In this document: in pieces, positions 9,165 to 61,542 of the stretch | Numbering within the stretch: position 1 is the first letter of the stretch | How the letters are laid out: each line of letters opens with the position of its first letter | Assembly: GCA_017506865.1 (NCBI GenBank) | Contig: JAFCMP010000334.1 | Location: forward strand, 744,001-808,000 | Reading direction: 5' to 3' | Length of the DNA: 64,000 bases | Source of the DNA: Tribonema minus | Taxonomy: Eukaryota > Sar > Xanthophyceae > Tribonematales > Tribonemataceae | Position numbers and translations under genes: made by a program | The notes under the pieces: model-generated | Databases searched by the model: none | What the model was told of the DNA's origin: nothing | What the model saw: the letters and a program-made list of their open reading frames with translations, nothing else

Positions 9165-12100
9165 ATGTGCGCGGCGGCAGCAGCGGCGGTCTCCGGAGTC
9201 CACGCCTTTGTGCTGCCGGCGGCGGGGGGGGCGGGGATGGGGGCGGTGAGCGCGCAGCGGGCAGCAACGGTGGCGCGGGCGCCGCATGTGAGCATGGTCG
9301 CGGCGGCGGCGCCGCAGACCAAGGTCAACGGCGCGGAGGATGACAAGGTGGGCGAAACTTCAAGCCTCACGTTGAAGTACGCTGACTCAACCGCGGGCGG
9401 CAGTGCAGATTTGTGAGGTGACTGTCCCGTTCGTCGGTGCTACCGTACTGCAGTCGTTCGCGTATGTGTGGTGCGGAACCATGGGGCAGCGCCACTGTCT
9501 GGGACCAGCAGTGCAGATGGCAAGGTGGGAAAATCACAAGCTGCATGCCATTATGACTGCGCCATCACCGCTGCGGCGCAACTGGGTGAGGGGACTGCGG
9601 GGTTCTGCTAAGGCAGTTACAGTGTGTTGGTGTAGTGCGGTGCCATCAGGCATCGCCACAGATTGCATTCAATGAATAGCGCAGAGGGTGATGGGGTCGG
9701 CAGAACACTGTGAAGTTCACTGCGGAGGCAGCTGTACAGGTGAACCGTGAGGTTAGGGGCAACATGGAAGGTGCAGAAGCAGTGCCGTTATACATGCAAA
9801 CAGTGAAGTTTGGGGCCAACTGGAAGGTGCGAGAGCACGAGTAAACAGTGTTGTGCTCTTCAGAGGACGGCTGTGACGTTGCATCAAATTGAACTATTCA
9901 CTGGACCACATTGCAGCAAGACTGCAAGCATGCACCTCGTGCACTGTCCCAGTTGTAATGGAGATGGACTTCTGCAGTAATGGCCAGAATACTGAACATG
10001 AACAAGCTTTTCACACCAGTGCAGCTGAGGTTTTCACCAGGCAGCAATGTTGGTGTGCAACTCATTCATGAGTCCTGTTGCCCAAAGCTCAACAGCACCG
10101 CTCAGATTCAGTACCTTGAGTTTGGGATTAGTCTAGCCCCAATCCCCAAACAGAAGAGAGTTTTGCAACTTGCACGAACGTTGGTTAAAAATTGAAAGCA
10201 CTGGTTAAAAATTGAAAGCACCGCTCGGATTTAATGCTTGCGTTTGATGTTGGCCCAGCCCTTACCTCAAGCAGAAGTGGCATGCGGATTGCGAGTGCTG
10301 CGCCACCATTGGCACTGCTGCTGCTGCTTCACTCAAAACCCCATCTCCTGTAAGCATAGAGGCATCAACAGCTCACAATATTAGGCTTGCGAATGAGGAC
10401 ATGATGGCGAACTCCCAACACCAGCAATGATGTATCACAAACCGAATTCGCAACACCAACTCCTTGTTTGCGATGCGTATTCTATCCGTCAAGCCTGTAC
10501 AAGAGTTGAGTTCAAGACCCTGTTCGTCGCGCAAACTTCAAACCCAGCCAACTGTCACTCACCCCAACTTACACCTAGATTCTTTGTAGAAATGAGAGGC
10601 ATCCGAGTACACTCATCTGGATGGTGGGTATGGCACTTGCTTTATCACATCTAGAGATCCACTTTGGCATTCCATCTCAAAGTCTTTTTGATGAACCGTT
10701 GAAGACCAGCAGATCTATGTGAACTTTGACGCCCATGGCTCAGAGACCAGCCCCGTCGAAGCTGCGCAGAAGCAGCGGACAGCCATATCGTCGAGGGGAA
10801 TCGTCGTCGGCCTTCTACAGGTCGTCACCGACACCACCATCGGCTCCGCGACTTTACATCTCAATTATGTTGGAATCTCAATTATGTTGATGTTGGAACT
10901 TCAACTTTATCGACAGAGGTCAGCGCCCCTGGAGCTCTGACGCTTTCCGTCAAGCAGACCGTCTTCATGGACCATAGGAAGATCTCAACTTTGAGCCATG
11001 GGCTCATGGGCTCTTTTGCATGAGGTGATGGTGGGGTCGGTGATGACCTGTAGGATGCCGACGACGATTCCCCTCCACAATATGGCTGTGCGCTGGTTCT
11101 CCGCGGCTTCAGCGGGGCTGATCTCTGAGCCATGGGCGTCAAAGTTCAGATCTGCTGGTCTTCAACGGTTCATTAAGCGGGCGTCGCGGGATGGTCATCG
11201 ATGACGCTGCTGATGCCCATGCAGCAGCGCCCAGCACACCGCAGCTTGCAAATGCTGGTGTTGATGTTGCATTACATGAAACTTACTTCTATAAGTAATC
11301 TCAATGGATGATTCTTTTAAAACTATATATTGAAAAGGTTATCCTTGAAAGAAAAATGTTGCCAAACCTGCCGTAGTGTGCCGCGATGCGGTGTGTGAGA
11401 GGGAGGGAGCAGCTGCGAGTCGCGCCGTTGCCGCGTCCGCAGCAGGCGGTCATCCTGAGCGCTGCGGAGCATCGTATCGCAGCAGTGCTCAGCACTGAGC
11501 CATCTGACTGACGGCCAGCGCGCCTGCGCTTGCCCGCGCAGCAATGCCCGTGGCATTGCTGATTCTGCAAGAGCGTTCACTCGAGCTCATGAAGGCACGC
11601 GCTGCGTCAGGCAGCAATGCACGCAGCAGCGCTCAGCACTGAGCCATCTGACTGACGGCCGGCGCGCCTGCGCTGGCCCGCGCAGGCATGCCCCCACGCA
11701 ACTGCTGTCGCGGCAGGAGTGCGCTCTCAAACCCATGAAGGCACGAGCTGCAATGCCCATGGTATTGCTGTTCTGGGAACAGAGTTCATTTAAAGTCATG
11801 TAATGAACGCGCTGCATCAGGTCGTACGCGCGCGTGTGGCACACGACGACGCAGCCGGCAGCAGCAGCAGCAGCTCGCGTCAGCAACGCGCCGCCGCGCT
11901 CCCGCCAGCTGGAGCCGACCCTTGACGCCGCACGCAGCGTATCGCACATCGACTTTGAGACTATGCGCGATTCTTGCGGTTTTATTTCGATCAATGAATT
12001 TTCAATCATTTTTCAATGGATCAAAGGTTTTTATCAACTACTGGTGTTCAGCCCCGGAAGTGTTTTCATATCAAGTCATCGGCGAAAAGCTAAGAATAAA

Positions 12101-15100
12101 TTGACGCGCCGCGCTCTCTCGCATGGTGACAACGCTCCGCAGGCCATCATCCTGAGCACCGTAGAGCGCGCGCGCACGGTGACGCACATTGCCAGCAGCG
12201 GCAGCCTGTGCACGTACAGCCTCACGGACGATCCGGAGCTGCAGGGCGCCCCCTTCGGCTCGCACGTCGACTACGTTCTCGACACGCAGGGGTGGCCGGT
12301 GAGCGCACAACGCTTCTTCAAGTATGGTATTTCTCGTGAGTTTTCCAAACGATGGCGTTTCACCATGCATGTATGTATGTATGCATGTCAAAATGTAGTA
12401 CATGAACACGTGTTCCACAGAGGACCCGGAGCTGCAGGGCGCGCCCTTTGGCTCGCATGCCGACTACGTTCTCGACGTGCAGCGGTGGCCGGTGAGTGAT
12501 AGGCACAATACTTGTTGAAGTGTGTTTTTTCTCATGAGTTCCGGAAAACGGCGCGTGCTACCGTGCATGCATGTCAGAATGTAGAATATGAACATGTGTT
12601 CAAAAGAGAACCCGGAGCTGCAGGGCACGCTCTTCGGCTCGCACGTCGACTGTGTGCTCGATGCGCAGGGGGGGCCGGTCAGCTTAGTCTTCGCCCAGAA
12701 TGCGGTGAATTCTGGTGTAAATCTGGTGTAACAATAACACGGCATGTTTTGACATGGAGCGGGCAAGTGATGAGCGTGATGTTATACCCCAACGTTCATT
12801 GCGCGGCTTGGCTACGCCAGCCATGAAGTGGGCACAAGCGGCGTTTCCAGATGTGCGCTGGCGTGAACCTTTAGTTAAGTTGAAATTCGCCATTTTGAAT
12901 GCAGCTACTGGGGGGAAATCTCCCGCGTGAAGTGTCGCCGCAGGCGCCTGAAAGCAGGCAAGACCTCAATCATGCGGCGCTGCTGTGGGACGACAAGCGA
13001 CATCACTCTGCGACGTCTCCGCAGCAAGCGTCGCTGATCGCTGATGCGCGTGCGCTGCTGCTGCGCGATGCCAACTGCGGCGTCCCCGCGGCGCGTGAAG
13101 GGGCTTGCCAGTGCCCTCCCCACGGTATGTATCTCACCAGCACCTGATGCATGCCCCTATTCCTTTTCCACCTGCCCGGTGTGCTGCGCCGTGGCCACTG
13201 CGCTACCAGACGCGTCCCGTGTCTTTGTGTGTGCCTCAAGTGGCTTGGAAACGCCTGCCGACAACCTGTCTGCCGTTCTGCCGCTGCCGTCGTCTCTCCC
13301 GCTCGCCGACTGCGATGCAGATCTTCTTGCTGGCGGAGGCGTCCCTGCACACAAAGAACATCAAGGCAAACAACAAGGTCAGCGCACGTCGCTGTGACAT
13401 CAATTTGCAGCGCGCGGTGTCGTTGCACTTTCAACGCGCGGCGTGGTATTCTGGGAATGTGGCTCTCCCTGTGCTCAAGCTGTGCACCGTGCCATGTTGA
13501 GCCTTCAACAATGCTGCTCTGTGCATGTGAGCGTCGCCATGCAAGTCAGGTTGGTGTTCAACGGCCTGCGGGGGGGTTTACTTGAGAGGGAGCAGAGGCG
13601 CAGCTGTGGGCTCCCTGGTGCATACACTCGGCTCTCCATTCAGCGCGCATGGGCACAGTCATACATGCTTGCAGAGCAACGTCCAGTGTGATGCGTTTAA
13701 GCGTGTGAGCAGACGCAGGTATGAACATGCACTCTCACGCAGAAGCCGTTGCCATCCATCAAGCTGCGTCACTCCTAACTAGCCCCCGTGCTCTGCTTGT
13801 GCATGCCACGCGCCGCCACACATCGCGCTGCCTCACAGTGAAGTTGCCTGTTGAAGTTTCAGGTACGTTGATGCGCTCCACTGCAAGCCCTCACCACGTC
13901 CAGTGCTTCACCATCCGGTGCGGCGCGGGCGCCATTCGCAAACCCTGCCCACGCGACCCCCCAATATCCCAACCTCAAAATTGCACTTTGTACGCGTCGC
14001 TGCTGCCAGGTGTCGCTGCTATGCCAGACGCCGCCCGCGGAGTCGAGCCAGCCCTGTTCCACGTGACTCTCCAAATCTCAACTTCAACTTGCACTTCGCA
14101 CACGTCGCCGCTGCCAGGTGTCGCTGCTATGCCAGACGCCGCCCGCGGAGTCAAGCCAGCCCGCCGCCGCGATGAGCCGCGTCACGCTGGTGGGCTACAT
14201 GGAGACTCTGGAGGACGAGGACGAGCTCATTCAGCTCAAGGTATGTATGCATGCAGTGCTGTTGGGGGTAGGTATATGGGGAAATGACGGTTGATGAGCC
14301 GTGTCACGCTGGTGGGCTACATGGAGGCACTGGAGGACGAGGACGAGCTCATTCAGCTCAAGGTATGTATGTATGCAGTGATGTTGCTTGGGTCGATGAG
14401 CTGTCTATGTATCACTGCTGTTGAGGGCACTTCAAGAAGTTGGCATTAGCAAATGTGAGGTTTGATGAGCAATGTCACGCCAGTGGGCTATATGGAGACG
14501 CTGGAGGACGAGCTCATTCAGCTCAAGGTATGTATGCATGCAGTGCTGCTGAGGGAAGGTATATCTAGAGATTTGAGATTTGATGAGCCGGGTCACACTG
14601 CTGACCGTATAGCTGCATGTTGAGGGCAGGTTATCAGGGGTACACTGCTGAGGGCTATATATTTGACTCGGAACCGATTGCCGCAGCGGCGGCGACCATG
14701 GTCATTGGTGAAAGGCTTTTGCGGCTGAACACACCTTGTCACCGAGAGATCTACGATCTTTTGATTCCTCTCCCATTGTATAGTACTGCTAACTTGATGC
14801 TGCAGGCGACCTTTTCGTTGACACACGCGTATGTGGCGCAGCTCGTTGATGCGCTGGATGTTTGTAATGAATAAAGCATGCATGTATTAAATGATGACTA
14901 ATAGTTTTGACTCGGTGCTGCAGGCGACCTTCCTGTTGGCGCATGCGTACGCGGCGCAGCTCATGGACGGGATGGATATTTGTAATGAGTAAAGTTTGCA
15001 TATTTAACAACGATGAATACATCTCTCGGCGCTGCAGGCAATTTCCCCGTCGACGCACGCGTACGCGGCCCAGCCAATTAACAGGATGGATGTTGGTAAT

Positions 15101-18100
15101 GAATAAAGCATACAGATACTTCACTTACTTGACTTATTCAACAATGTTGAATACTTCTGACTCGTGTGCTGCAGGCCACCTTCCCGCTGACGCACGCGTA
15201 CGCGGCGCAGCTCGTGGACAGCCCGCGCTTTGTCTTCTACAAGCTCCGGCCGGAGAAGGTGAGCGCGCGCATGCAGCAGCAGTGCTCATCTCCTGCTCAT
15301 CACGGCGCTTCATTTGCTGAGCGAGTGGGCTGCAGCGCACTGTTGAAGATTTTTGTCAGGGGCTCGAAGTCATCTTGAGCGTTTTGAAATGCAACTCAGC
15401 GCGATCTGGGGCAACGAGTACTCGGTGCAAGTCACGAGACTACACGACACCGCCAGCATCTGACCCCGGCTTGACTGAATGCACAGTTGGAGCTACCGGC
15501 ATGCGCATCAACTTGCTCCTCCTGCAATCCAGCGCATCTGTGCTATGCCGCGGTAGTCTCAAGTCCCGGGAGATCTCGCCATGCTCATGTGCTGTTGGTC
15601 GCTGACTCAGTGCGCGCCGCTTGTCGTTGAGCGCTGCCACCGCAGATCTACTACGTCGGCGGCTACGGCGTGCTGAGCAAGTGGCTCGACGTCCAGGAGT
15701 ACGAGCTGGCCAAGCCCGACATCCTGGCGGACAACGCGGCGCGCATCGCCGCAAAGGTACATACATACCTGTGTCTGTGTGTGTTTGTCATTGCGCACTG
15801 AGGCGCTTCTAGTGTTCACACGATGCATGTAGCTTCTGGCAGCAAGCAAGCTAGACGTCTACGCATCGCCGCGCAGGCACCTATGACCAACGCGGTTGAT
15901 CATCGCTGCCCATGTACTTTCAGAGCACCATGGACCATGATTGGATTCTCGTGAACTGCATTCGCGCAGGCGCTCGCGCGGCGCTTGCACACCGATGTGC
16001 ATGCTTGTGTGTGTGTGATCGTCAGTGCGCATTGAGACGCGTTTGAGTGTGCAAGAGACACTTATAGATTCTGGTAGCACCGTAGACATCTGCCATCTGG
16101 GCCCGTTCAAGCCCGAAGCGAGGATTCATGAATCAAAAGCATATGCTTTCATGTTGGACGCTCAGTGACGACGCTGGCGCACGCTGACCAACACGACGTG
16201 CACCGTACCTCATGTTGAAGTGCGGCATTTGGGGGCCCATCCCTTTTATGTGTGGGGCGTCACGCCTGACCTGCATCAGCATTTGCAAAAATGGTAACAT
16301 GCCATACAAATCTGCATGTGCCCGCCGCCCACGAAAGCAGTGCTCAGCCGGATTGGTGCGCGCTGGCTGAATGCCGTTCTCACCACCTCCCCATTTCCAA
16401 CTCGCAACTCCGGGCGCTTTGTTCATTGCGTGTCGACAGCGCATACTTGAAGTACTAAGTTTTTGAAGTACTAAGTTTGTGGGCAGCGCTCAACGCGTAC
16501 GATATCGACCAGCGTCTGACGTGTCCGCACGGTGATTTGCAATTCCAGCCCCAGTGTTAACATCACGTCGACGAATGTCCGCACACGCAGCGCATGTGCA
16601 CTTGAAGTTCTCTGTGTGCAGCGCTCCAACGCGCATGATATCGCCAAGCGCCTGACGCCGCCGCGTGCGTGAGCGCCCTTCCCCTTGTGTGGTGCGCATC
16701 GCAGATCAACAGGTCTGACATCGCGTCGCTGCGTGCGCGCCCCGCAGCGCATATATTTCAAGTACTAATCCGTTTGCAGCGCTCAATTCAATGCGTACCG
16801 CACCGAGGAGCATCGCGTCTGACGCGTCCGCACGCGCGCGCGCCCCTCCCCCCCTTTGCGTCACGCAGATCAACAAGGCCAAGCAGGGGGACCTGGCGCT
16901 CGTGTGCAAGCAGTTCCTCAACAAGCCGCGCGTCGACAACGTCGTGCTCACAACGGTCGACAGGCTCGGCCTTGACATCCGCGTCACTGACGGCGCGCTC
17001 ACGGACGAGTACAGGATTGGGTTCACACAGGTACAGTGACAGTACATAATAGTGCAGGACAGAGACAGTACAGAACAGAGAGGTAACGTCGTGCTCACTA
17101 CGGTCGACAGACTTGGCCTCAACATCCGCGTCACTGACGGCGCGCTCACGGATGAGTACAGGATCGGGTTCACGCAGGTACAGTGCAGTACAGTTACAGT
17201 GTAGTACAGTGACAGTACAGAACAGAGGTAGAGTACAGGTCGTGCTCACTACGGTCGACAGGCTTGGCCACGACATCCGCGTCACTGACGGCGCGCTGAC
17301 GAACGAGTACAGGATCGGGTTCACACAGGTACAGTGACCTCACATTGACAGTGTAGTACAGTGACAGTACAGAACAGAGGTAGAGTACAGGGCGTGCTCA
17401 CATGGTCGACAGGCTCGGCCTCGACGTCCGCATCACTGACGGCGCGCTCACGGACGAGTACAGGATTGGGTTCATGCAGGTACAGTACAGAACAGTGCAG
17501 AACAGTACACTACAAAACAGGGGTACAGTGCAGGTCGGGTAAATTGAATTTGCCTCACATGGATTTGACGTCAGCGTCACGGATGGCGCGCTGACGGCGC
17601 TGGCGAGCAGATAAAGTTCCCTGGAAGCCGCCGTCAAGATAGAACATGACAACTTCATGGAGGTTGCTAAGGAGAGGGGAGCAAACTTTCTGCTCACGAA
17701 GAAAAACGAGGCTCTCCAGCAGCAGCTGAGGGAGCGGCTGCGCAAGGAACCCAACGAGAAGCGTTTCGGCGACACCTGAGCAAGTTGAAGCCACTTACAT
17801 AGAAGCTTCTGTCACATGAGCTGCAATACAGTCGAGAAGACGACTAGTGGCAGGATGAACTTGTCCTGACAGTCCTTCAACTCCTTTATCTCGGCGCGAG
17901 CAAGTCTCGGCGCCGTCCTTCTGCAACTCCTGAAAGTCCTTCTTTGCCTCTGCGCGAGTCTCGACGCACTCCTTTTTCATTGTGTCGGTGAGCTCCTTCT
18001 TGGAGGCGTGGAGCGTGTCCTCCAGGCCCTTCTCAAAGTCGCCGAAACGCTGCTCGTTCGGTTCCCTGCGCCGCCGCTCCCTCAGCTGCTGCCGAAGAGC

Positions 18101-24404: not shown

Positions 24405-27400
24405 CTAAGCGGCCTCCGCAGCGGACGTTGGGGATTCTCCCTCCGGGGCCCACCCCATGACCCACTGCGTGACTTTGCGCAGCGTTTGCGCGCGCGCCCC
24501 CGTGACGGCCGCCGAGTCGGACGGCTGCGGCCACATGAGGTCAAGGTGGTGCGCAGCGTCCGGCAGCAGGATGGTCTGGCAGCGCTCAACAGGGGAGGGG
24601 GGATGGGGGGGAGGAGGGGGGCAAAGAGTGAGGGTGCGCGTTTCTAGGCTGTTGCAGGGTCAGCACTCAGCAGCAGGAGGAGCACGGGCTGTAAGTGGGG
24701 GGGGGCAAGGGTGGGGTGGGGGGGGCTGAGCTGCAGGGCGATTGCCAGGGCGCTGCGGGCTCACGAACGGCAGATGGCTTCGACGTTGACACGCAGCCCA
24801 AGCCTCAGTGCAAACTGTAGCAAGGCGCACCGATTCGCAGCGCGTGCGGTCTAAATCGTGAATGCCGTCCGCGTGAGCGCACCGCGCGCACGGCCGCAGC
24901 GAGGGGCCCAGAGGCAACGACGCTCCACAGCCGGCAAAGCCGCATGACTCATGGTATTGTTTTTGAGCCGTGCACTACGCGCAGCAATGAACCCCCTGTC
25001 ACGGCAGCACGCACCGTGACGCTGTCCTCGTTGATGCCAGGGTCCCCGGGGAGGACGCCCAGGGGCCCCCACGGGTCCATGTCGCCATTTGTGAAGACGA
25101 CGTTGGACAGTGACTTCAGCCGCTGCGGGGGGGCGGGGGGGGGGGGGGGGGGGGGGGGGGACAAGAGAGCTTGGTGAGGGCGTTGGTGGCAAGACATCAA
25201 ATGAAGGGCGACGCCGCTGCTTCTAGCCGCTGACCCTGTCACGACGCCAGAGCTGGTCAGGTTTACCCTAGCCCTACTCCTGACCTTGCTCCTGAATTCA
25301 ACTCTAGCTCCTTGACACGAGAGCTCGTGATGAGGGCGTGCCGAGTTGCTGGCGATGATACGCATATCAAGGGCGACGCCGCTGTTCCTCACGCCGCTGA
25401 CCCTGACGTTACGGCAGAACTGCATTGGTTGGCGTTACCCTCACCTGACTCCTGACCCTAATCATAAGTTGAATTCCAACTCTACCTCCCTCAGCCGAGA
25501 GGCACGCCGCATGTCACGTGTTGCCAATGCGCCAGCGACGCTTACGACGAGCACGCATGGACGCTTGCGTTGAAACCTGCTGCAGAGCAGTGCCGATACT
25601 CGTCCCGGAAGTTAACACTTGGGCCGGGCTGAAAGCTCACGCGCATTGTACGTACACGCCATCATGACATTGAGTGGTCTGAGTGCGGCGACCCCTGGCA
25701 GGGGTGGCGCCGCCACCGGCGCGAGCGCTGATGTAGAATTCAACTGTCTACTGCCGCGGTGCACAAGTGCTTGTGCACCGCAAAGACGTGACCGTGTTCT
25801 TTTCGTCTCTTGTATCCCCAAGAGGACCTTCAAGGATGATGTCAACGAACTGTGCCGCCGGACTTGATGACGGCACGGTCCCACCGCGGCGCCACGTCTT
25901 ACCGGTCGGCAGCCTTGAGACAAAACTTCAAAAGAAAACACCACAACATGAACACAACAACAACGTAGAGACGAAACTTCAAAGGCACCTTGCCGCCAAA
26001 CCCTATGGCGGCCCGGTCCCACCACATCGCCACGCAACGCCGGTCCGCAGCACCTGCGGCCATCACACTACAAAGCCAAACATCACGATGATATGACCTT
26101 GAACTTATGTTAGAGATATTGATGTATATTTCTATGATCTTCAAACGCACCTTGCCACCGACCTCGATGGCGGCCCAGTCCCACCACAACGCCGCGTAGT
26201 ATCGGTCGGCGGCAGCTGCTGCCATCAGACAACACTACAAAGCTAAACACAACAACGAAACTTAAATGAAACTTCAAACGCACCTTCCCGCCGAACTCAA
26301 TGGCGGCCCAGTCCCACCACGGCGCCACGCCGTTCTGATCCGCAGCCCCCGCGGCTATCAGATCACACGAAGGTCAACGCCAGACATCACCCCATCAACG
26401 TCACCAACTTCAAATGAATCTTCAAATGCACCTTGCCACCAAACTCGATGGCGGCCCAGTCCCACCACGGCGCCACGCCGTACTGGTCGGCGCACTTGGC
26501 GCGCTCGCGCTCGTCGTCCCACGGCGCGTCCCAGAACATGTCCGTCACGCCGTCCGTCGCACATGGCACCCACATCTCGGTGCACGCCTGCGGCGCGCAA
26601 GGCAAGGGAAGTGCATGCACGATTGGTGATGTGATGTGTTTCCGCGCAGAGTGCGCGCCCTGCTTGGAGGGGACAGGGTGCTTCGGCAGTGCTTCAAAAG
26701 GAATGGTTTTTCGGCGCTGTGTCCGCCGTGAACGGCACCCACATCTCCATGCACGCCTGCGCGGCGCAGGGGGGGCGGTGAGCGGCGAGTGAGGGGCGCT
26801 GCCGATGATATGAGGTGATACGTGCCACTCAGCACAGTGTGCTGCGTGCACGCTCTGAAAATGCAGTCACCTAGGAGTTGCTTGCGCTAACTGTCGCAGA
26901 CGGCACCCACACCTCGGTGTACGCCTGCGGCGCGGCAGGCCAGGGAAGTGCATGCACAATTGGATGATGTGATGTGTTTCCACGCAGAGTGCGCGCCCTG
27001 CTTGGAGGGGACAGGGTGCTTAGGCAGTGCTTCAAGAGCAGTTTCCGGCGCTGCGTCCGCCGTGAACGGCATCCACATCTCGGTGCACGCCTGCGGCGCA
27101 GCGGCGCAGGTGGCGGTGAGCGGCGAGTGAGGTGTACCCGCGTGCAGAGTGCGCGCCCTAGAGGCGGGGAGCAAAGTGCAGTCATCTATGTGTGTCGCTT
27201 GCGCCACCCGTCGCGAACGGCACCCACATCTCCGTGCACGCCTGCGGCGCAGGGGGGGCAGCAGGCGGTGAGTGAGGGGCACTGCCAGTGGTGGAAGGTG
27301 TACCCCGTGCAGAGTGTACGCTTCAAATGCAGTCACCTAGGAGTTGCTTGCGCTGTCTGTCACAAACGGTGTCCCCATCTGAGGGAAGGGTATGCGCTCT

Positions 27401-30400
27401 TGGTGATGTGAGTGTTCCCGTGCAGCGAGCGTGCCCTGCTTGGAGGCGGCATGATGCATGATGCATTCCCTTCTCTTTCTTTGCTTTGAGGTGCTGGAAA
27501 AGTTGTACTTCGAAGTACTTCTATCAGTCACATCTTGGCGCGCCTCTGCGGCCCCAAGGGCAACACGAGGGGCAGGCGCAGCGTGAGCGCTTTCAACAGC
27601 CTTGAATCCAGGGAGTTATGGTCGCCGCCATGGGAGCGGCCATCGTGTACAACTCACAGCTCACGTATTACCCCCCCCCCCCCCAGTTCACTCGCATGCA
27701 CAACTCCCGCCCCCCGCTCCCATTCCTCTCATGCAGCCTTGATCCCATGCAACTATTCAAAAGCACCATTTTCTGTGCGAGCGCGGGGGGAGGGGCAAGC
27801 GGCCAGAGGCAACGCTACACATCCTTGAAGCCCCTGCGGAGCGCTGACCTGATACCCCCATCCCGTCAGGTCGGCGTCGGTCTCGGGATTGGGCCCCGCG
27901 CCCGCGTCGAAGCACGGAACTGTCCCTGTGGCATTGTACAACACGCCCGCTGCGTGCGCGAGGCCTTCCAGTAGCTGTGCCTCCCAGTCTTGCACGTGCG
28001 CGCTATTCGAGGTTGTGTCATCACCACCAGCATCTGCGGAGGAGTGGGCGGGGGGAGGGCGGGGGGGGGTATCGGCACAGTCAAGGGGATCAGAAGGGGG
28101 AGGGGGGGGGGGGGGGGTTCTGTGATTGTGGCAGCAGGCAACGAACACCGATGGCGCAGGGGTGGTGCAAGCTCCGCAGGGCTCATTGCATTGGCGGGTG
28201 TTGACTGTCCACGCAAGTACGGCGTGAGACGAATGAAGCTGGACACTTAAAAGCATAAAGTGCCATGACAACTGTCAACAAGGACAATGCACCAGCGAAA
28301 ACCGCACCCGACGTCGCCGGCGGCGGTGGCAGGCAGCGGTGCGCACGCGCCACACGCACCGAGATACGCAACGTTACACAATAGACACCACTTAACAAGG
28401 ACAATGTGTAAGGGAAATGTATAAGGGAAAACCGCACCAGGCGTCGCTGCCGGCAGGATCGGGTCGCTGAGCGGAGCGCACGCGCACTGCATGGGCCACG
28501 CTGGCAGCACCCCGCCACCATTGGTCATGTACGCCGAGGGCCACGGGTAGTTGCCCATGGCGAGCGTGCCCCACGCGTCCTGCAGCCAGAGCGCGACGTC
28601 ATCGACGGCGGCGGCGCTGTCCGGCGCGGTGCAGAGGCGCAGGTGGCGCGCCAGCGCCGCGCGGCCGCCGTCGCTGCGAGGGGGCGGGGGGGAAAGGGGA
28701 AGATGGGTATCGGCGAGCGGGGGGTATGTAGTAGGGAAGGTAATTTAAGCGACGGAAGCGTAAGGTAGGTAGCGTCGTGCGGCCAGCGCGCGATGTCATC
28801 GACGGCGGCGGCGCTGTCCGGCGCAGCGCAGAGGCGCAGGTGACGCGCCAGCGGGGCGCGGCCGCCGTCGCTGCGAGACAAAGGAGGGGTTGGGGGTGGG
28901 GGTGGGGTGGGGCAGGGGGTAGGTAGTATCGTTGAGCGGAGTAAATGTGATAGGGCAGGCATGTGTGCGATGGAAACGCACGGCAGGTGCCGCGCCAGTG
29001 CCGCGCGGCCGCAGTCGCTGCGACGCCGGGGGGGGGGGGGGGGAGGGGGTAGGTAACGGTGAGCGGAGGTGATGTGATAGGGCAGGTATTTTTGTGCGAT
29101 GGAAGCGTACGGTAGGTGTCAGCGCTGCGTGGTCGTCATCGCTGCGCTCGGCCGGGGGCTGGGCACGGCGTCGGAGCCGGGTAGCGGTGAGCGAGAGGCA
29201 TGCAGGTGTTGATCAAATGGGAGCACACTGTCGGGAATACTGCAGGCAACAGCGCCGCGCGGTTGTCATCGATGCACAGGGCAGTGGTGCCAGCGTAAGG
29301 TTGGCATGTATCAGTGAGCAGTGGGTACGTACTGAGTAATGAAAGCATGCGGTAAGTATCACCGCCGCACGCCCGTTGGCGCTGCGCTCGGGGCGGGCGA
29401 TGGGGACGGCGCTGGGGGTAAGCGGCAGTGGGCGCAAGGTACAAAGGCATTGAACAGTGAAAGTGTGCCGTGGGCACCAGCGCTCAGCGGGGCTAGCGCC
29501 GCTGCGCCGGCGACAACACGAGCGCAGGGCACGGCGTCCTTCAACCGTGGGTATGCACAGTACAGAGGGTATGCGTCAGTCAAGCGGCGACAACATAGCG
29601 GGCAGGGCACCAACGAGCAATGACACACGTCGCTGCGCCGCGGCCTCACCTGCCGCCGAGGCGGAACAGCGGCGCCCACGCGCGCCGCACGTTGTCGGCG
29701 CACGCCCCGTAGCGCGCCGCCGTGTCGGTCACGCGCGCCGCGAACGCCAGCGCGCCGCGCGCATGCTGCCCGGTGAACGCGAGCACCGGCGCGCTGCCGG
29801 CGACGGCGCCGGCAACGACGTGAGGGTACCTGCGGGGAGTCGACGCGCAGAGCAAAGCGCGTCGACGGCGATTGAGGTGGCGCAGGCGGTGCGCGTGCTG
29901 TCGAAAGGCACGGAGCGGACCAGCGGGCGCTGCCGGCGCTGAATGCACCCCAAGATGCTGTTGATAATGCAAGTGAGACCGCCTCTGTGCTGCAGGCAAC
30001 ACAACCCCATCCGCAGCAACGCTCCGCGATGCACGCACTCACTTTGCGCGCAGCCACGTGGCGAGCATCCCGCCGTACGAGCCGCCGTACGCGACGACGG
30101 CCTGGCTTGCGCCCGCTCGCAGTGCCTCGATGAGCCGTGCGTAGTCCGACAGCGCCTGTGCGGCGCTGAGGTGCTCCCTGTGGGGGCGCTCTTTGTCGTC
30201 ATTGCCCGCGAACGGCTGCGACTGGCCTGCAATGGCGCAGCGCCAGGTGTGAAACGGCACGCACCGTGAGCGCGTGCGATCGCAGCGTGAGGCGTTGTGA
30301 TGACGGGGAGGCAGTGCTCAGGTGTAGTCGGACAGCGCCTGCGCGGCGCTGAGGTGCTCCCTGTGGGGGGGGGGGCGCTCTTTGGCATCATTGCCCACGA

Positions 30401-50292: not shown

Positions 50293-50492
50293 ACGGCACA
50301 GCGCGCGCGTCATGCGTGCGTCGCCAAGTAATCGATGGCATGAGGTTCTGGGGGCATGGGGGGGGCAGGGGGCCCATGTCACTGGGTGACACAGGGTGAC
50401 TGCTGTTGCGACCCGTTTGCGGCATTTGCTGTGCCCAGGGGAACCCTGGTCTGTTTTGGCTGGCGACGAGCGCGCCGCCTCTCGCCTTTTTG

Positions 50493-50501
50493 TGTAATAA
50501 A
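50493..50501 (+). promoter_or_regulatory. Candidate LC8 poly(A) signal
   Basis: TGTAATAAA lies about 200 nt after the LC8 stop and combines the chlorophyte-type TGTAA with AATAAA. Confidence 0.5.
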
Positions 50502-53189: not shown

Positions 53190-56100
53190 ATGTCTGCGGA
53201 AATGGAGAAGCGCTTCCTGCAGATGCTGCAGGCTTGCAGGGACAGGGAAAGATCAAAACAGGACGGAGGAGAGGGCAAACCTAACAATGGCGTATCCACC
53301 ACTGCGCTGCAGCAGGAGTTCGGGGACGATCTCAGCCCTCTGGAAAAGTTCATCAACGACATGTTGGTGCAGGTATGAATCATCTGAATTCAAGCCAAGA
53401 TCAAATTGCTCTGTTGGTGCTGCCTTGCAGCTGCTCACTGTCGACCCTACGAAAACCGGGCTTCAGCGTATGCTCCGGTGGAACGAGTTGGGCCCATACC
53501 AAGGTTCAGGACCCAAGTATCACTGCAACGCACTGCGTGCCTTGCAGTGGCAGCAGCTGTCGGAGCCGACACATGCACTTCTTTTCCTGGAGTTGACGCC
53601 TGTACTAGTGCCTGTGTGGATGGATACGTGTACTGTTGTCGGTGCACTCACTGCTGTAGGCGCCCCTTACAAGTGTGTGCGGCTCAATGGCTGGTGTCGA
53701 TGTTGCTGGCGCTCCTTCGGCGCTGTAGGCAACTGATACAGCATTTTTCTCTCGTCAGACCCCAGCTCTTGTCAACACATGCAGTTGATATTTCAGGTTG
53801 GAGGTCCTTGGACGCGTGCCGCGCAGACTTTCTCATAAAGCTCAAAGTCTGTGCGGGTCAGCATTATGATTGAAGGAGCTGTGCACGCTCGCATGTGGAC
53901 GCGACAAGACAAGGTGAATAGGATGTGGCTCAGGCGGCAGCAGGGGGGATACGGGGATGCAAATGCCATTACTTGGAGCCCGGCGTATGTCAGTGGGCTC
54001 TTGACCCGTTGCTAGGGTGGCAAAATTGCCTTCACCAGAGCGTGCGCATTGCGCCCGGTCTGTTCTTTCACAAACGTTCAGAGGTGCGGTTGCTTTGTGC
54101 CGCAGTTGCAGTCATGGCGAACGACAGCGGGCACGTAGACAGCTGGCTTATCTGTGCAACAAAGTGTTTGTCAGCACCCTCAATGCGCGATCTGCCCTGT
54201 TGCTGGTTACTGAAAGTTGCCACTGTATATGTCCTTCAGGGTCGGTTACATCAGGGTGCGTCATGGTGTTGTGAACGTCGATGCAGCTCGCCATCACGCT
54301 GACATCCAGAGCAGTGCGCCTGGAAGGACCTTTCATCTCAGCACACAGGCCTGCTGCCATGTGCGCGCTGCTTTGCACAATGTCATGCACAAGCTGCTTC
54401 ATGACGCTTCTACCCTCTCTGTCTCCTCATATATGCACTCTATATGCATATTTGTCTCTCCCACACATTCTCTCCCCCCCCCCTGCTGTATACGACATGT
54501 CTCTCTCACACATTTTCTCTATCACCCCCCCCCGCCCCCCCCCATTTCTCCCTCTCGGTACGATTATGCGGTCGCAGCGTCGCGTCCAGCTGGCCAGGGG
54601 CACCGACGGCGTGCTGTGGTACAAGCTCCTGGACGAGGAGACGTCCACCAAGCTGCAGGACCTGTCCAAGGAGCAGCAGACCGTCTACCAGGTGGGCCGC
54701 AACTTCAACCTTCCAATGTGACGCGCTCCCACAACTTCATCATGCACTTGTGACACACCAGGTGCGCCGCAACTTCAATTCTCCCGTGTGACGCGCCCAC
54801 ACAGCTTCATCATGCACTCGTGAGGCACCGGTACGACTTCAGCGCCTGCCCTGTACCTCCTGCACCAGTTTATGGTAATCACACGATGCATCTGCTCAGG
54901 TGCTGCCATCATGCCTTTAACTTCAATTCTCCAATGTGACGCGCGCACACAACTTCATCATGCACTCGTCAGGCACCAGGACGACTTCGAAAGGCACTTT
55001 CTCATACGTGCACAAAAGCAAGGCCCTTTTTGCGCCTTCCATGGTCACATGTGCGAATATCGAACAACACATGTTGAAGCGATTCAGGTGGGCGCCGCTG
55101 CAAAAGTGTCGCCACGCTGCGCGGTACCTTCTGCACCAGGTCATACCACTCACATAAGGTTTGTGATGCGTCTGCTCTGGCGCTGCTGCGCTCGTGCGCC
55201 CATACGGCATCCGCCGCGCAAGCCCCGATGTTGGAACGCATCAGGCACAGACGTGTGCCACCGATGAGTGCTGCTGCTGCGCCTTTCACAGATCGAACCT
55301 TAAACCCTCACTGTGTGCGCACGCGGTCCGTTGCCACCGTCGTGACCTGAGTGATGTTCACGGGAGCCGTCATCTGCGCACCGCGGGCACGCCGGCTTTG
55401 TCTCCGAGCCATGCTTGCGCACAAGGGGGTCGGTTCGCTGCGGCGGCAACAGTAACGTGCTCGCTTGATGGCTGCACGGACGACGACCGACGATAAGTTA
55501 TGGAACGCAAACACCCGCGAGCCACACGAGTGGAGTCGCTCGTGAGCCATGACTCGAACGCCACATGCGGCTCTGCCCCCCCCCCCCCCCCCCCCCCCCC
55601 CACCCCCCCCCTTGATGCGGCAGATTGTGGACGCTGGGGACCGCGGCAAGTTGGCTCTGGCGTGTTGACTACCTGCAAGTCTCAGGCACAGTCACTCACG
55701 AGTTGTCGCCACACTGCTGTGCTGCTCCCCGCGCCGTCGTTGCAGCAAATATCCAACGCCGGGGACCGTGGCATCTGGGTCCGCGACATCAAGAACAACT
55801 CGGGCATACAGCAACAGGTGCGCCCACCTCAACTGCTGCCAAGTTCAAATATACCAAATACATTTGCTGGTGCTGGTGGAATCAACTGTGCGGCCAGAAC
55901 ACAAGTGTCAAAAGCATCACGTAACCGCCATGGAACCTCGGCGTCTGATTGATCGGCCATTGGAGGAGTTGAAATTCCCGAGAACACGCGTTGTCAAACA
56001 TGTGGAGGCACAAGTGCTTCATCTCCAGTATGAAGCCAAGAGGGCATGCTTTTTTGTACCGTCAGCTGAGGTTTGGGGGGCTATACTGCCAATACCCTGG

Positions 56101-59100
56101 CAAGGTGCTATTTACCGTAGCTCGGAGGTCAGTGCCTGTGCCAGTATGCTCGCCGCTCCTGCACACACTGCATCACCTCCGCGCTGAGGATGCGGGAGGG
56201 GGGGCATGGCTGTTGTGGCCTGATCAAGTGTCGCTTCCTGGCCTGCTCCAGCACACCACCAGCACGCAAAGCGCGCCGGACACGCCTCAATGTTGACCAG
56301 TGATCTATGTAGAGCGCACGTTGCGTGCTGACGCAGTGCTGTGCACGCCTTCTGCATCAGGGTTTGCCGGGACGGCCAGGATTAGGTAAAGGTCAGGGCT
56401 AGATTTTGAAGTAGGGCTACCACTGAGGCCCTGCAAGCGGTGCGGGGGCTGCAACTGACACGCGCTACAACCACTCTTTTGGGGACATTTGCATTCCGCG
56501 AGCGCTGGAAGTGCACACCCAGTTGCTTGCTGACGCATGGCCCGCACGCGCACGCCGCCCCTCTGTGCGCGCAGACGATCACCAAGGCGCTCAAGGTTCT
56601 CGAGGGGCGCGGCCTCATCAAGTCCCTGCACGGCGTGCACAGCAAGACCAAGAAGCTGTACATACTGGCCGGCCTCTGTGAGTGCACGCTTTGTTCACAC
56701 TTTAGTGGATGTTTTTCTTTCATGTTGTGGAGGTATGCGTACCATGCCTCGAGCAGGTCCCTCCACGGCACGCACAGCAAGACCAAGAAGCTGTACATAC
56801 TGACTGGCCTCTCTGAGTAAGCGCTTTGTACCCCCTGGGTGTTGGTATTGTGTTGTTGGGGTATGCCTTCCGCGTATCCTTATCAAATCTCTCAGCGGCA
56901 TGCACAGCCAGACAAAGAAGCTGTACATTTTGGCTGGCCTCCGTGTGAGTCCACGCACTTGCGTACTCCCTGGGTATGTTGGTGTTGTGTCGTCACGGTC
57001 TGCCCTGCATCACCGCGCAGCGTGAGAACCGCTGCAGTGAGGTCGATGCACGCAGTTTGCACAGCGCTCAGGCAATGCGCGCACAGCAAGGCCAGTCGCC
57101 TTTGCAACCACACAGCGTTGTCAACTGGCCTCTGCACGCACCGCGCCAGTCGTTGTCGAGTGTACAATGCACACACGTTTGTGACTGCGCAATGCATGAA
57201 CGTCCATATAGCTGAGCGCTGCTGAGCCGCAGCCACGCGCGCGCGCGCGCAACGCCCTCCGACGAGCTCTCACACACATGCGTCTGGTACACGGATGAAG
57301 CAAGTGGACGCACGATTCACGGATTTCATGAATGCGCGGGAGACGAGCAATCATGTCGCCGAGCGCTACCGTGCTGCTGTTTCGCGCGTGCAGCGCCCTC
57401 CGACAAGCTCCCTGGCAGTGTCTGGTACATCGACAAAGCGCGGCTGGCTTCGTGAATTCATGATGGTTGGGCGGGCCTTTATGCATGATTCCGGGGATAT
57501 TCGCATTGCTGAGCGCTGCCGTGCTGCGCGCCGCAGCGCCCTCCAACGCGCTCATGGACAGCGGCTACTACACGGACAAAACGTGTTTGACTTCGTGATT
57601 TATCATTACGGGCGGTCTCTCATACACAATTTACAATTCATGAACGTCCTCATTGCTGAGCGCTGCTGTGCTGCGCGCCGCAGCGCCCTCCGACGAGCTC
57701 ACGGGCGGCGTCTGGTATACGGAGACACCGCGACCTTATTCTCGACGCGAAAGTACGATCTATTATCAATGTTCCGTACGCATTCATGAACGCTCACATT
57801 GCTGAGGGGTGCCATGCTGCTGCCGCCGCGCGCGCGCCGCAGCGCCGTCCGACGAGCTCACGGGCGGCGTCTGGTACACGGACAACGAGTTCGACCACGC
57901 GTTCATCGACTCGCTGCGCTCGTTCGTGACGACGGTCGTGCGCGAGAACCGCCTCCAGGGCACCACGCTGGAGGCCATCACGGCGCAGGTGCGCACGAGC
58001 GGCATCAGGTGAGCGCGCGCGTGCAGCATTGCTCATCAGGGTGCAGCAGCAGCAGCGCACGTACATGCGTAAATCGGTACTTTCCTGCTTTGACAGAGGG
58101 GTGCAGCAGCAGCGCACGCACATGCGTGAATGGTTTATGGTTACGCTTCTGCCTACACGAAAGCAGCGCACGCACATGCGTAAACTAGTACACTCCCGCC
58201 CTCACGAGTGGGGCATTGCTCGACACGGTGCAGCGGCAGCGCACGTACATGCGTGCAGTAGTGCATTTCTGCCTTCACGAGCTGCTGGCGACGGGTGCGC
58301 AGCGGCAACATACATGTGTAGCCCAAGATACTGCTGGAAGTACATGCGTAAACGTGTACGCGTCAGCTTCAGAGTTCATAAGTGCTGTTGTCATCATGGA
58401 AGTCATGCTGCGCATAACTGCTTAATGCTCTCCCTGCACCCTTGACTCAGGGCTGCGTCAGTCTATCGTGCTGACTGTACCAGGATGCAGGCAATGCGCC
58501 TCTCTGCTCTGCAACTCTCGGCAGCCAGCACTTGTGCATGCCAGCCCCCCCCCTCCCCCCTCCTACCTGCAAATCACCACAGCTTGGCATTGATCGCACG
58601 CAGCCGGTCGTGGCTATGTACAGTCGGTCAGCGCGCATCGCCGCAGAGGCGGCTTTGCATGCTGCCTGCACAGCGGCGCTGGCAGAATAGCTGATGCGGC
58701 ATTTTCCAAGAAGAAGATGATTATTACTTTTTTGTGTGTGTTGGTGCAAGCGAACGCGCAGCAATAGCGTGGCTTAGCTGTTTGTGTTGCATCACTTGAC
58801 GACTGGCCAACAGACTCTCTGGCACTATTTTGATAGACTATGGTAGTTTGCACTCTGGGCAGATAAAAACCATGAACAGTACAAGCCTGCCAGCACCAGT
58901 GCTGATACACAAGCCCCCCCCCCCCCCACACCCACGCCCCTCGTTCTTCCACTCTGCAGCACGGTGGAGCTGACAGCGGGGCAGATAGACACCATCGTGC
59001 GCTGCCTTGTGCACGATCGCATCATCGAAGAGGTAAGCAGTGGCGCCACGTTTCAGTATGGTAAACCGTCATGTGCCAAATTATGCCGGTCAGTCAAGAA

Positions 59101-61542
59101 TTACGAGCGTACCGGGCACCGATCCTTATTAGGCCTGGGTGTTTTTTGGGGCATTCCTATTTAGGCCTGGTGGTACTTTTTATGTGGTTACCCTACCATG
59201 GCATGCACATCATTTGGTACTGGTGAGGCACTCAAAGCACAGCATGCAAGCAGGTTACAAGTGCCATTGCACTTATCAGATGCACACCTTCAAATGCTCA
59301 TAGCACCCTCTGATGGATAAGAGCAGCACTTGTACATCTTGCATGCACAAAGCATGCATACAGCAAGGTTTTCTCGACCGCGGCGTGATCTGATGGACAA
59401 AAGCCACTGTCCTCCCAACAGATCTTTAGCTGATAAAATCACTCAGCCGGTCTCCCACACGCACTTCGCCTGGAAGCCAGCAAGTACCTCCACGTCTGAA
59501 TAGGAGGATGGAGCTGGAGGTGGTATTGCTAGTGCTGCTGTTGGGGCTCGCGGGGTGGAAAGAACACCCCCAAGATATTGAGCTGTCTTTGAATCTGTGA
59601 TGAACAAACATTATTTCGCGTATCGGTTTCGCGTCAATGCAACTTCAAGTGTGTTTCGCATCGTTTCAACAGCGAAACAAAAGCAGCACGCACAATGTAT
59701 TGCAGGTCTCGATGATGGTCATACTATATACTTCGAAGTATAGTATAGTGCCCACTTGAGGGTGTTTTGAGGGCCCTGTCCTAATTGCGCCGGGTGCTTT
59801 TTTTGCGTGATCCTTCTTCAGTGTCCCAGTGCTTTTTTTGACCATTCTAAATCTTTGACCGACCGGCCTAATTTGGGACATGACGGTATACAGTCAGCCC
59901 TCAATCCTCTTGTGACCAATGTCATTTTGTTTTGGTGCAGTGTGCGCCAGTCAGTTTCAGCGTGCCGTCTGAAGCAAGGGCGCCCACGCTTGCGAATCCA
60001 CACCCAGCGCACATGTACCCCCAAATTTCGGCCGTAGTACTGCGCGGCACACTGCGGCGGTCCTGGCAGCTTGACCGATCAGTGCAGGACGAAGTTGGAA
60101 AAGAAGTTTCACAGACGGCGGTGGACGCGGTATACTGCGCAGGATGACATGATGCATGCAATGTTAGGAAGGGGATAAAACCTCTTGAAACCCCTTCATT
60201 CCACCTGTTTCTATGCCCAATTACTTTGTAACACCAACTGTCGCCTCTTACTTGCAGCCTTGTCTTGCACATCTGTGCTGCGCCCATTTAGCCTCTGATG
60301 CATCGTATTGCGCGTCCTGATGATCATGCATGCGGTCCGTGGCACAAGTGCTACCAGGGATATGTATGCTGGATATCATCAAGCACTACTGTACAGACGT
60401 GCGCGACGCTCCGCTTGACAGCGGTCGACCAACTACACTTCTATGTCAGTGCCGTCATGTGCCATCATGTCACTGTGTCCACCAAGAATTTGGGCAACTG
60501 TACTGATGCATCGCCTTCACGTCCCCGTGTCCCTCTGCAGATTCGAGGCACTGGCAACGGCAGTGATGGCGTGCTATTCAGGGTAAGTAGGCACCCCATG
60601 AGATTTTGATGTTGTTGACGCTGCCTCGTTCTTTCTTGTGAGCATCACAGCGACGTCTGCTTAGCCACAAGCACGGCGACTTGACTGCAGCACGTGCCGT
60701 GCCCAGCAGCAGCGCGCTCTACGCATTTGGCTGAGGCGCACAGAGGCAGACTTCACATCACCACGAGTCTCAGTACCGCAACACCTGTTTTGATGTACAG
60801 CGTTTCACGGGTTTCTCGGAGCGCTGCTGCTAGCCAATCGGTGCACCAACCTTGCACATTGTCAATTGGCTCCCTCCGCAGTCGTAGTGTGAGCGCATTC
60901 TCTTGACGCTGCTCACCAAGAGGCGGCGCTTCCAGCGTTCGCTGCGCGCGCTGCGCCGTCGCCTGACCACCCGCTGACGACGGTACATTGCACTTCTGGT
61001 GTGTGCCGGCCCGCACCGCCATCATTACCAGCGCGTTTCGCGGCGGCGCGGTGTATTGGACCAGCACCGGCGCCCACTGCCGCAGCCATACCACACCGTC
61101 AGTGAGGAAAAGATGCACACAGCGCCCGTCGATCTGCTGCGCACCACAGCACAGCACCAAATGCCTATTCGGCAGTATGCGTCGCCAACCCCCCTGTCGC
61201 CGCCGCCGCTGCTGCTGCCGCTGCTGCTCATGGCTTGCTGACCTGGTGTGCAACACAACAGCAGCAAACGCGCGCTCAGCAGCACGCGTTACCAACCCCG
61301 CTGTCGCTGCCGCCGCCGCTGCTGCCGCCGCCGCCGCTCGCGCGCAGGCCTCCAAGGACGCCGACAGCATGCCCGATGCGTTCCTCACCGAGTTCCCGTG
61401 CGGCGTGTGCCCTGTCATCGACCACTGCGCGGAGGGCGCCGTCATTTCGCCGCAGACGTGCGTGTACCTCGCGCGCTGGCTCGAGATGCCGGGCACGGAC
61501 GACTACCAGAGGCCATGCCTCAAGGCGGAGGACCTGTTCTGA
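53190..61542 (+). CDS. RPC6: RNA polymerase III subunit RPC6 (POLR3F/RPC34)
   Basis: Exons 53190-53372, 54578-54691, 55746-55817, 56575-56677, 57843-58008, 58960-59032, 60541-60582, 61348-61542 give 315 aa (human: 316), with phases matching at every junction. Two winged-helix regions lie in the first two thirds: LARGTDGVLWYKLLDE, NAGDRGIWVRDIKNN, ALKVLEGRGLIKSL with TKKLYIL. These are followed by LTGGVWYTDNEFDHAFI. The C terminus keeps four cysteines, Cys269, 272, 278 and 289 (PCGVCPVIDHC then TC), with the C-x2-C-x5-C-x10-C spacing I recall for the 4Fe-4S site of this subunit. RPC6 acts with RPC3 and RPC7 in open-complex formation and TFIIIB contact for tRNA and 5S rRNA transcription. Introns 2, 4 and 5 are rich in exon echoes or repeats. 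Confidence 0.95.
54692..55000 (+). repeat. Tandem repeats after RPC6 exon 2
   Basis: The start of intron 2 (GTGGGCCGCAACTTCAACCT followed by CCAATGTGACGCGC and CAACTTCATCATGCACT) recurs from 54763 and from about 54918. The copies retain the block order CAACTTCAA, GTGACGCGC, TTCATCATGCACTCGT. These are intron-start duplications with no clear exon part. Confidence 0.85.
55576..55655 (+). repeat. Poly-C tract and upstream echo of RPC6 exon 3
   Basis: 26 C, one A, nine C (55576-55611), then TTGATGCGGCAG and an exon 3-like start at 55624 encoding I-V-D-A-G-D-R-G. After that it diverges. The functional exon 3 starts at 55746, 122 bp downstream. Confidence 0.8.
56740..57140 (+). repeat. Downstream echoes of RPC6 exon 4
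   Basis: Copies of the exon 4 3' end (S-L-H-G-x-H-S-K-T-K-K-L-Y-I-L coding) end near 56812 and 56937, each still followed by a TGAG or GTGAGT donor-like stretch. A decayed third (GCACAGCAAGGCCAG) lies near 57070-57130. The functional exon ends at 56677. Confidence 0.9.
57225..57842 (+). repeat. Four upstream echoes of RPC6 exon 5
   Basis: The unit GCTGAGCGCTGC...CGCAG|CGCCCTCCGACGAGCTC..GTCTGGTA(C/T)AC recurs with exon-like starts near 57252, 57393, 57536, 57683 and the functional 57843. Spacing is 141, 143, 147 and about 160 bp. The copy nearest the exon keeps S-D-E-L-T-G-G-V-W-Y-T. Farther copies are more mutated. Confidence 0.92.
58009..58370 (+). repeat. Short tandem repeats after RPC6 exon 5
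   Basis: A GCAGC(A/G)GCGCAC(G/A)(T/C)ACATGCGT block recurs at about 58049, 58107, 58163, 58229 and, degraded, 58300-58350, at intervals of roughly 55-70 bp. It may derive from the exon 5 end (GCGCAGGTGCGCACGAGCGG) but the match is weak. Confidence 0.7.

What the first reader, a model, noticed from the sequence alone, without database searches (positions are those of the whole stretch)
9165..61542. Exon echoes: introns containing serial decaying copies of their flanking exon junctions
In four unrelated genes (HugZ-like, S28 peptidase, PH-kinase, RPC6), introns contain stepwise copies of the adjacent exon boundary. The geometry is strict. Copies of exon 3' end plus donor occur only downstream of that exon, and copies of acceptor plus exon 5' end only upstream. 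Copies nearest the real exon are usually best preserved. I found no echo out of place. Tandem duplication across a splice site is a known route to intron gain and exon duplication. Repeated use at many junctions in one 64-kb window suggests an active, junction-biased duplication process. ARL6, LC8 and RING lack obvious echoes.
Basis: partly seen in the sequence, partly recalled or inferred. Interest (0 to 1): 0.85.

Follow-up and report, generated by a model that had tools for sequence, protein, structure and literature searches.

The report
Introns stuttering copies of exon ends
In this alga, about three in ten of the exon ends tested in confirmed genes are followed or preceded, inside the neighbouring intron, by worn-out copies of themselves that look like the product of short local DNA duplications, so part of its introns seems to have grown from stuttered exon edges.

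Summary
In homology-confirmed genes, 24 of 75 exon 3' ends have a copy in the downstream intron and 23 of 76 exon 5' ends in the upstream intron; wrong-side tests give 0 of 122, mid-exon tests 0 of 56. It recurs on other contigs of the same genome.

Consecutive copies lie 94-249 nt apart (median 143; counted up to 250). Most hold 24-95 nt of exon whatever the exon's length, and they evolve without constraint. Predicted spliced proteins match known families across echo-bearing junctions.

Best explanation: repeated tandem duplications straddling splice junctions. The exon-attached copy goes on splicing; the spare is intronic and decays. This makes the strict geometry automatic. Yet junction arrays exceed a uniform-duplication simulation (63 of 88; 24% expected), and intergenic DNA holds only 3 arrays. 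Bias towards genes is well supported, towards junctions probable; the latter weakens if introns evolve three times faster than copied exon letters.

Its cause is unknown. Genes differ widely (32 of 71 against 1 of 32 junctions). New variant of internal gene duplication; not introners, not Rogers-type intron gain.

The parts
9165..19530 (+). HugZ-like (CREG beta-barrel + DUF2470) gene; exons 9165-9347, 12143-12298, 13321-13377, 14119-14240, 15174-15258, 15646-15756, 16868-17030, 18687-18750, 19453-19530
   Evidence: Pfam on the protein spliced from exons 2-9; exons read and by the gene finder (13321-13377 is missing from the final model)
12211..12676 (+). Donor echoes of exon 12143-12298: copies near 12420-12491 and 12608-12676, spacings 193 and 186
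   Evidence: the gene finder called the first copy an exon
13949..14162 (+). Acceptor echo of exon 14119-14240, offset 108
14171..14603 (+). Donor echoes of exon 14119-14240, spacings 122 and 165-171
14784..15227 (+). Acceptor echoes of exon 15174-15258, spacings 137, 114, 118
16921..17604 (+). Donor echoes of exon 16868-17030, spacings 147, 151, 151; further partial copies at 18192-18249 and 18318-18381
24406..31570 (-). Peptidase S28 gene (part); exons 24406-24584, 25015-25122, 26432-26587, 27849-27988, 28438-28673, 29650-29829, 30043-30226, 31410-31570
   Evidence: Pfam PF05577 E 4.8e-60, profile 18-432 of 434, on the protein spliced from these exons
25971..26503 (-). Donor echoes of S28 exon 26432-26587, spacings 148, 133, 162, 138 (the copy at 26284-26334 was called an exon by the finder)
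26721..27276 (-). Acceptor echoes of S28 exon 26432-26587, spacings 169, 168, 166, 151
28566..29127 (-). Acceptor echoes of S28 exon 28438-28673, spacings 197 and 147
30126..30540 (-). Acceptor echo of S28 exon 30043-30226, offset 189
30996..31508 (-). Donor echoes of S28 exon 31410-31570, spacings 173 (99% identical) and 218
38486..41064 (-). Protein kinase gene (part); exons 38486-38860, 39301-39413, 39692-40290, 40936-41064
   Evidence: Pfam Pkinase on two of these exons
40494..40979 (-). Donor echoes of kinase exon 40936-41064, at 154, 299 and 574 nt
53190..61541 (+). RPC6 (RNA polymerase III Rpc34 subunit) gene; exons 53190-53372, 54568-54691, 55744-55817, 56575-56677, 57843-58008, 58960-59032, 60541-60583, 61348-61541
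   Evidence: Pfam PF05158 E 3.9e-61 on the protein spliced from exons read; the final gene model lacks three of them
54687..54988 (+). Short-unit repeat (70 bp, then 148) starting 5 nt inside exon 54568-54691; too little exon to pass the strict test
56606..56999 (+). Donor echoes of RPC6 exon 56575-56677, spacings 135 and 130
57190..57899 (+). Acceptor echoes of RPC6 exon 57843-58008, spacings 159, 147, 143, 141

Best explanation
Short tandem duplications of about 95-250 bp arise repeatedly inside genes with one breakpoint in an exon and one in the neighbouring intron. The copy still joined to the exon body keeps its splice site and is spliced as before, so the protein is intact. The other copy, an exon fragment plus splice site plus some intron, becomes intronic, is spliced out and decays without constraint; further rounds build arrays and lengthen the intron. 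Purifying selection removes duplications inside exons, which explains the strict geometry. On top of that the process is biased towards genes and probably towards exon edges, about equally on donor and acceptor sides. Shown on the samples: copies, geometry, spacing, neutral decay, family-like spliced proteins, excess over a uniform model. Inferred: that the copies are absent from mRNA, and that the excess is mutational and not due to unmeasured differences in decay. Its molecular cause (for example template switching or slippage during replication or repair of transcribed genes) is a guess.
For: Geometry: 47 of 151 right-side against 0 of 122 wrong-side. Metagene (first gene models): 40-mers with a downstream copy are 31% at exon 3' ends against 2-3% at 80-160 nt inside the exon; mirror image at acceptors, 26%. 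Offsets of exon and intron pairs peak at 100-200; of 23 intergenic pairs the median is 61 and 3 fall in 100-200. Noncoding-noncoding pairs at offset 90-230, free of the exon-conservation bias: 2.5-5.8% of windows within 300 nt of an exon, 2.9% at 300-500, 1.4% at 500-2000, 0.4-0.6% intergenic; the 40-90 class shows no such contrast with intergenic DNA (0.4-1.2% near exons, 0.45-1.0% intergenic). Simulation with matched detection: 63 of 88 arrays at junctions against 24% expected; genes only 63 of 85 against 38%; cytoplasmic dynein gene alone 29 of 36 against 38%. Neutral decay: differences at codon positions 0.118/0.097/0.181, 12 of 123 indels a multiple of 3; splice dinucleotides kept 50 of 64 and 40 of 53 against 51.2 and 40.8 expected. 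A spliced dynein stretch aligns to cytoplasmic dynein 1 chains across its four junctions. Spacings are more alike within arrays than between, p 0.0012, 32 arrays, as unit duplication predicts. Among 15 HMM-found dynein exons printed, 5 carry an echo scoring at least 9 above its reversed null (D11, D13, D15, D17, D18).
Against: Intron-side homology is weaker than a neutral simulation predicts: in the 0.95+ exon-identity band 5 of 11 copies reach z>3 against 95% simulated, and lower bands also fall short, so part of the copies may hold little intron, or introns evolve faster than assumed. If introns evolve 3 times faster than copied exon letters, the within-gene junction excess falls to P 0.008 and that of the dynein gene to 0.019. 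Homology between successive inter-copy intervals is clear (z>3) in only 12 of 57 pairs. The 55 partial first echoes hold at most 95 nt of exon, though simulation puts 34% above 95; a longer query found 111 nt once and a few weak matches reaching 141-152 nt. The plain model does not explain this shortage. Gene models are ab initio outside the confirmed genes, and the finder called several echoes exons. No RNA, no reads, no sister species. Several gene models show none.
Confidence: 0.68

Rival explanations
1. Unbiased tandem duplication everywhere in genes; exon edges only look special because exon letters are conserved, so exon-intron pairs stay recognisable about twice as long, and purifying selection sets the geometry.
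For: Explains the geometry fully. Intron-side decay is faster than modelled, and with intron letters evolving 3 times faster the within-gene excess shrinks to P 0.008, dynein gene P 0.019.
Against: At equal rates P is 1e-11 within genes and still 1e-5 at twofold. Noncoding-noncoding pairs, not subject to this bias, also fall off with distance from exons. Intergenic DNA has 3 arrays where about as many as in introns (22) are expected.
Confidence: 0.2
2. The copies are functional: alternative exon ends, cassette exons or decoy splice sites kept by selection.
For: Some copies have splice sites on both sides and an open frame, for example three 78-nt units in the dynein gene, and the gene finder calls several copies exons.
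Against: Indels ignore the frame (12 of 123 multiples of 3), first and second codon positions change freely, splice dinucleotides are lost at the neutral rate, and the protein without copies matches the family across the junctions.
Confidence: 0.05
3. Introners or other dispersed elements that carry splice signals.
For: Introners are reported from 5% of searched species (PMC9860276, start of abstract seen). A few dispersed pairs exist in the other blocks (11 direct pairs more than 1 kb apart in C522 and 11 in C113) and between blocks.
Against: Each described array repeats its own exon. In the window no pair lies more than 1340 bp apart. Between blocks only 2, 4 and 10 hits at E 1e-5 or better (at most the best six of each pair listed); I did not check each against the arrays.
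Confidence: 0.02
4. Assembly artefact.
For: No reads were available.
Against: Copies differ by up to about 30%, decay with indels and respect splice sites; artefacts should give near-identical copies anywhere (inference).
Confidence: 0.02

Closest known systems
Internal gene duplication (Gao and Lynch 2009, known to me from citations in PMC4974935; original not read)
   Same: Direct duplication within a gene that can include exon and intron parts
   Different: Here duplications of 95-250 bp straddle a single splice site, recur serially, leave non-coding copies, and touch about 30% of tested junctions in confirmed genes
[quoted passage not shown] potato RdRp case PMC4974935, Drosophila PMC2891723; passages read)
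   Same: Tandem duplication touching splice signals while the protein may stay intact
   Different: Copies lie within existing introns and add length; no new intron position shown
Tandem exon duplication with alternative exons (recalled)
   Same: Exon sequence repeated in the adjacent intron
   Different: Mostly only one exon edge is copied: 55 of 64 first echoes lack part of the exon, and the copies decay as noncoding DNA
Dual-specific splice sites in tandem-repeat genes such as polyubiquitin (PMC10809524; abstract and outline)
   Same: Tandem repeats with splice sites at unit edges
   Different: There the repeats code for protein; here they do not

Membership tests
Internal (intragenic) tandem duplication | Direct copies within one gene at short offset | tested here: met
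   46 of 48 window pairs direct, offsets 57-1340; within-array spacing similarity p 0.0012
Internal (intragenic) tandem duplication | Whole unit, intron part included, is homologous between copies | tested here: inconclusive
   40 of 114 copies reach z>3 on intron +7..+46, fewer than simulated; 12 of 57 interval pairs z>3
Rogers-type intron gain by tandem duplication | Donor window and acceptor window of the same intron are homologous | tested here: not met
   6 of 105 introns (null rate 0.05%); in a looser list of 11, 10 involve a predicted exon of 78 nt or less
Introner elements | Same intron sequence at many unrelated genes | tested here: not met
   samples of 264 kb only
Tandem exon duplication / alternative exons | Complete exon with both splice sites copied | tested here: not met
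   9 of 64 first echoes reach the far end of the exon, each in a predicted exon of 78 nt or less, several themselves echoes
Tandem exon duplication / alternative exons | Copies used in transcripts | not testable with these tools
   no RNA data

The most novel reading that the evidence does not exclude
A mutational process aimed at exon edges: something tied to splicing, transcription or exon chromatin makes DNA near splice junctions duplicate in 95-250 bp steps, on both sides of the exon and mostly with less than about 110 nt of exon, and this stutter is a major engine of intron growth (repeat arrays of offset 90-230 hold 39% of intron letters in the cytoplasmic dynein gene and 14-27% in the three sampled blocks).
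Probability: 0.35. Interest if true: 0.85.

Novelty: new variant of a known kind. Interest (0 to 1): 0.72.

Why it matters
How introns get longer is usually put down to transposons and random insertion. Here a sizeable share of intron sequence in some genes is visibly made of decayed exon edges and their neighbours, giving a record of how introns grew. If the junction bias is mutational, it would link splicing or exon chromatin to DNA instability, directly testable in an alga. The copies also form a natural neutral clock next to each exon and a trap for gene finders, which call some of them exons.

Tried and rejected
Chance and low complexity: a reversed-intron null gives 1 of 155 and 0 of 157. 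Coding constraint on copies: not supported. My early impression that splice sites in copies are conserved was refuted. My early idea that units are nucleosome- or Okazaki-sized was not upheld: spacings (117, counted only between 60 and 250 nt) have their mode at 110-120 and run from 94 to 249. A breakpoint at mid-exon was rejected: copied exon length does not scale with exon length. GC content as driver: echo rate is flat (0.22-0.27) across exon-end GC 0.55-0.75, 0 of 12 below 0.55 and 11 of 69 above 0.75. Identity over free-gap alignments of intervals is uninformative; only its z-scores are used. Breakpoint microhomology: of 8 rows with offset 94 or more in the ungapped scan, 3 have an aligned length above the offset, by 2, 4 and 6; too few to conclude. 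Species: not identified; 92 light-harvesting (PF00504) matches mark an alga; Amorphochlora amoebiformis was considered and excluded by its 27% GC (passages). Rfam found nothing in the window at gathering score. Literature: in the listed top papers of searches (7-15 listed of 7-3337 each) I saw no report of serial junction-straddling copies; the library is open-licence PMC only, and I read titles and abstract starts, plus passages or outline of four papers.

Weak points of method: seeds used the wrong strand for the minus-strand dynein loci; corrected. One search counts one echo each of D13/D21 and D15/D18 twice because those loci overlap; from then on D18 and D21 were dropped (D19 too), which also drops D18's own echo; one search left out D16 and D18-D22. 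In the 63/22/3 count (100 arrays in all), 7 exon-internal and 5 'other' arrays (4 of these in the dynein gene) were set aside. Some of the 22 intron-only arrays, such as 26721-27276, are themselves acceptor echoes, so the junction share is if anything undercounted. 'Intergenic' includes predicted introns of 3 kb or more. Searches stopped on script errors and were redone.

Full report
What was examined. The window is G000:C334:744001-808000 of a 158.2-Mb genome in 554 contigs. I had the 64-kb window, two 100-kb blocks from other contigs (C522, C113) and 17 short dynein loci. Genes were modelled with a small self-trained gene finder (corrected) and partly checked by Pfam: 20 exons from the blocks, of which 12 had a family at E 0.01 or better, and 9 window proteins, of which 7 did.

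The observation. Self-alignment of the window gives 48 pairs, 46 direct, the farthest 1340 bp apart. Across the samples, 40-mers from exon 3' ends have a copy downstream within 700 bp in about 31% of windows, falling to 2-3% at 80-160 nt inside the exon (deeper bins are small and vary); exon 5' ends mirror this upstream at about 26% (first gene models). With strict 50-mers the counts are 36 of 155 donors and 26 of 157 acceptors, against 0 of 257 wrong-side and 0 of 118 mid-exon tests. In genes confirmed by homology they are 24 of 75 and 23 of 76, against 0 of 122 and 0 of 56. Outer ends of terminal exons: 1 of 22 starts, 1 of 6 stops.

The genes are real and the copies lie outside the family-like protein. 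The S28 peptidase spliced from eight exons matches PF05577 over profile positions 18-432 of 434, and the RPC6 and HugZ-like proteins match Rpc34 and CREG/DUF2470. The C113 gene with most arrays is a dynein heavy chain by Pfam, and a 736-residue stretch spliced from five exons matches chains named cytoplasmic dynein 1 heavy chain best; its four junctions fall inside the two aligned stretches, 1-482 and 555-736. All four introns carry an array at one end at least.

What the copies are. The 55 that are partial hold 24-95 nt of exon, median 54, also in exons of 300-750 nt; the lower limit is set by detection, and a longer query gave 111 nt once and a few weak matches of 141-152 nt. Consecutive copies are 94-249 nt apart, median 143, counted between 60 and 250. 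They decay neutrally: changes at codon positions 1, 2, 3 are 0.118, 0.097, 0.181, as expected if the copy changes everywhere and the exon mainly at third positions; 12 of 123 indels keep the frame; splice dinucleotides survive at the rate of other letters.

Why the geometry is automatic. A tandem duplication across a donor leaves the upstream copy attached to the exon and the spare downstream; across an acceptor the reverse. Duplications inside exons or of whole exons change the protein. So strictness alone proves nothing about targeting.

Is there targeting? Exon-intron pairs stay recognisable longer than intron-intron pairs, so I used two controls. First, pairs with both copies noncoding, offset 90-230: 2.5-5.8% of windows within 300 nt of an exon, 2.9% at 300-500, 1.4% at 500-2000, 0.4-0.6% intergenic. 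The 40-90 class is 0.4-1.2% near exons, 0-0.3% in far introns and 0.45-1.0% intergenic, so it shows no such contrast between genes and intergenic DNA. Second, a simulation of uniform duplication with neutral decay and the same detection: junction share expected 24%, observed 63 of 88; within genes 38% against 63 of 85; dynein gene 38% against 29 of 36. With introns evolving 1.5, 2 and 3 times faster the within-gene P is 5e-8, 1e-5 and 0.008. Since intron-side homology is indeed weaker than simulated, I take the gene bias as well supported and the junction bias as probable.

Not explained. Why exonic parts mostly stay below about 110 nt (34% above 95 simulated); why no echo lies closer than about 95 nt (selection against a competing splice site is possible); why genes differ so much: 32 of 71 junctions in the dynein gene, 1 of 32 in a C522 model with ankyrin repeats and 0 of 16 in a C522 model that includes a reverse transcriptase exon; why intron parts fade so fast.

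Rivals. Introners: no shared families seen in the samples, though a few dispersed pairs exist. Rogers-type intron gain: 6 of 105 introns, and in a looser list 10 of 11 cases involve tiny predicted exons that look like echoes. Functional exons: against by neutrality, though three 78-nt exon-like units in the dynein gene deserve RNA data. The literature listings show tandem duplication discussed as a source of new introns (PMC4974935, PMC2891723; passages read) but I saw no serial junction echoes; subscription papers are not covered.

Verdict. A real, neutrally decaying, gene-associated and probably junction-biased tandem-duplication process that contributes a notable share of intron sequence: 14-27% of intron letters in the sampled blocks lie in repeat arrays of this offset class, 39% in the dynein gene.

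Noticed in passing
window 10688-10841 and 11027-11176; 17647-17773 and 18038-18164: Two long inverted repeats (88% identical arms of 127-154 bp) in introns of the HugZ-like gene; the second interrupts its echo array.
   Followed up: no
window 7578-7614, 10182-10221, 16447-16478, 24072-24111: Perfect or near-perfect (94-100%) two-copy tandem doublets of 16-20 bp, a different size class from the echoes.
   Followed up: no
L038:127-577 (C113 block 50127-50577): Three successive 78-nt exon-like units (26 codons, open, with AG and GT) copied from the end of dynein exon 49819-50033; possible cassette exons.
   Followed up: partly
window 106-1590, minus strand: Reverse transcriptase and RNase H exons of a retroelement at the window's left end.
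   Followed up: no
window 9165-9230: HugZ-like protein starts with a leader holding AFVLP, reminiscent of transit peptides of complex red plastids (motif recalled, not tested).
   Followed up: no
window and both 100-kb blocks: CCCTAA-type repeats and TTGAAGTTGAAGT-type words are strongly enriched; TTGAAGTA is commoner in introns (0.40/kb) than in exons (0.04) or intergenic DNA (0.16).
   Followed up: partly
C522 block, gene model at 233-21057: A 22-exon model with introns of similar length but an echo at only 1 of 32 junctions, against 32 of 71 in the dynein gene.
   Followed up: partly
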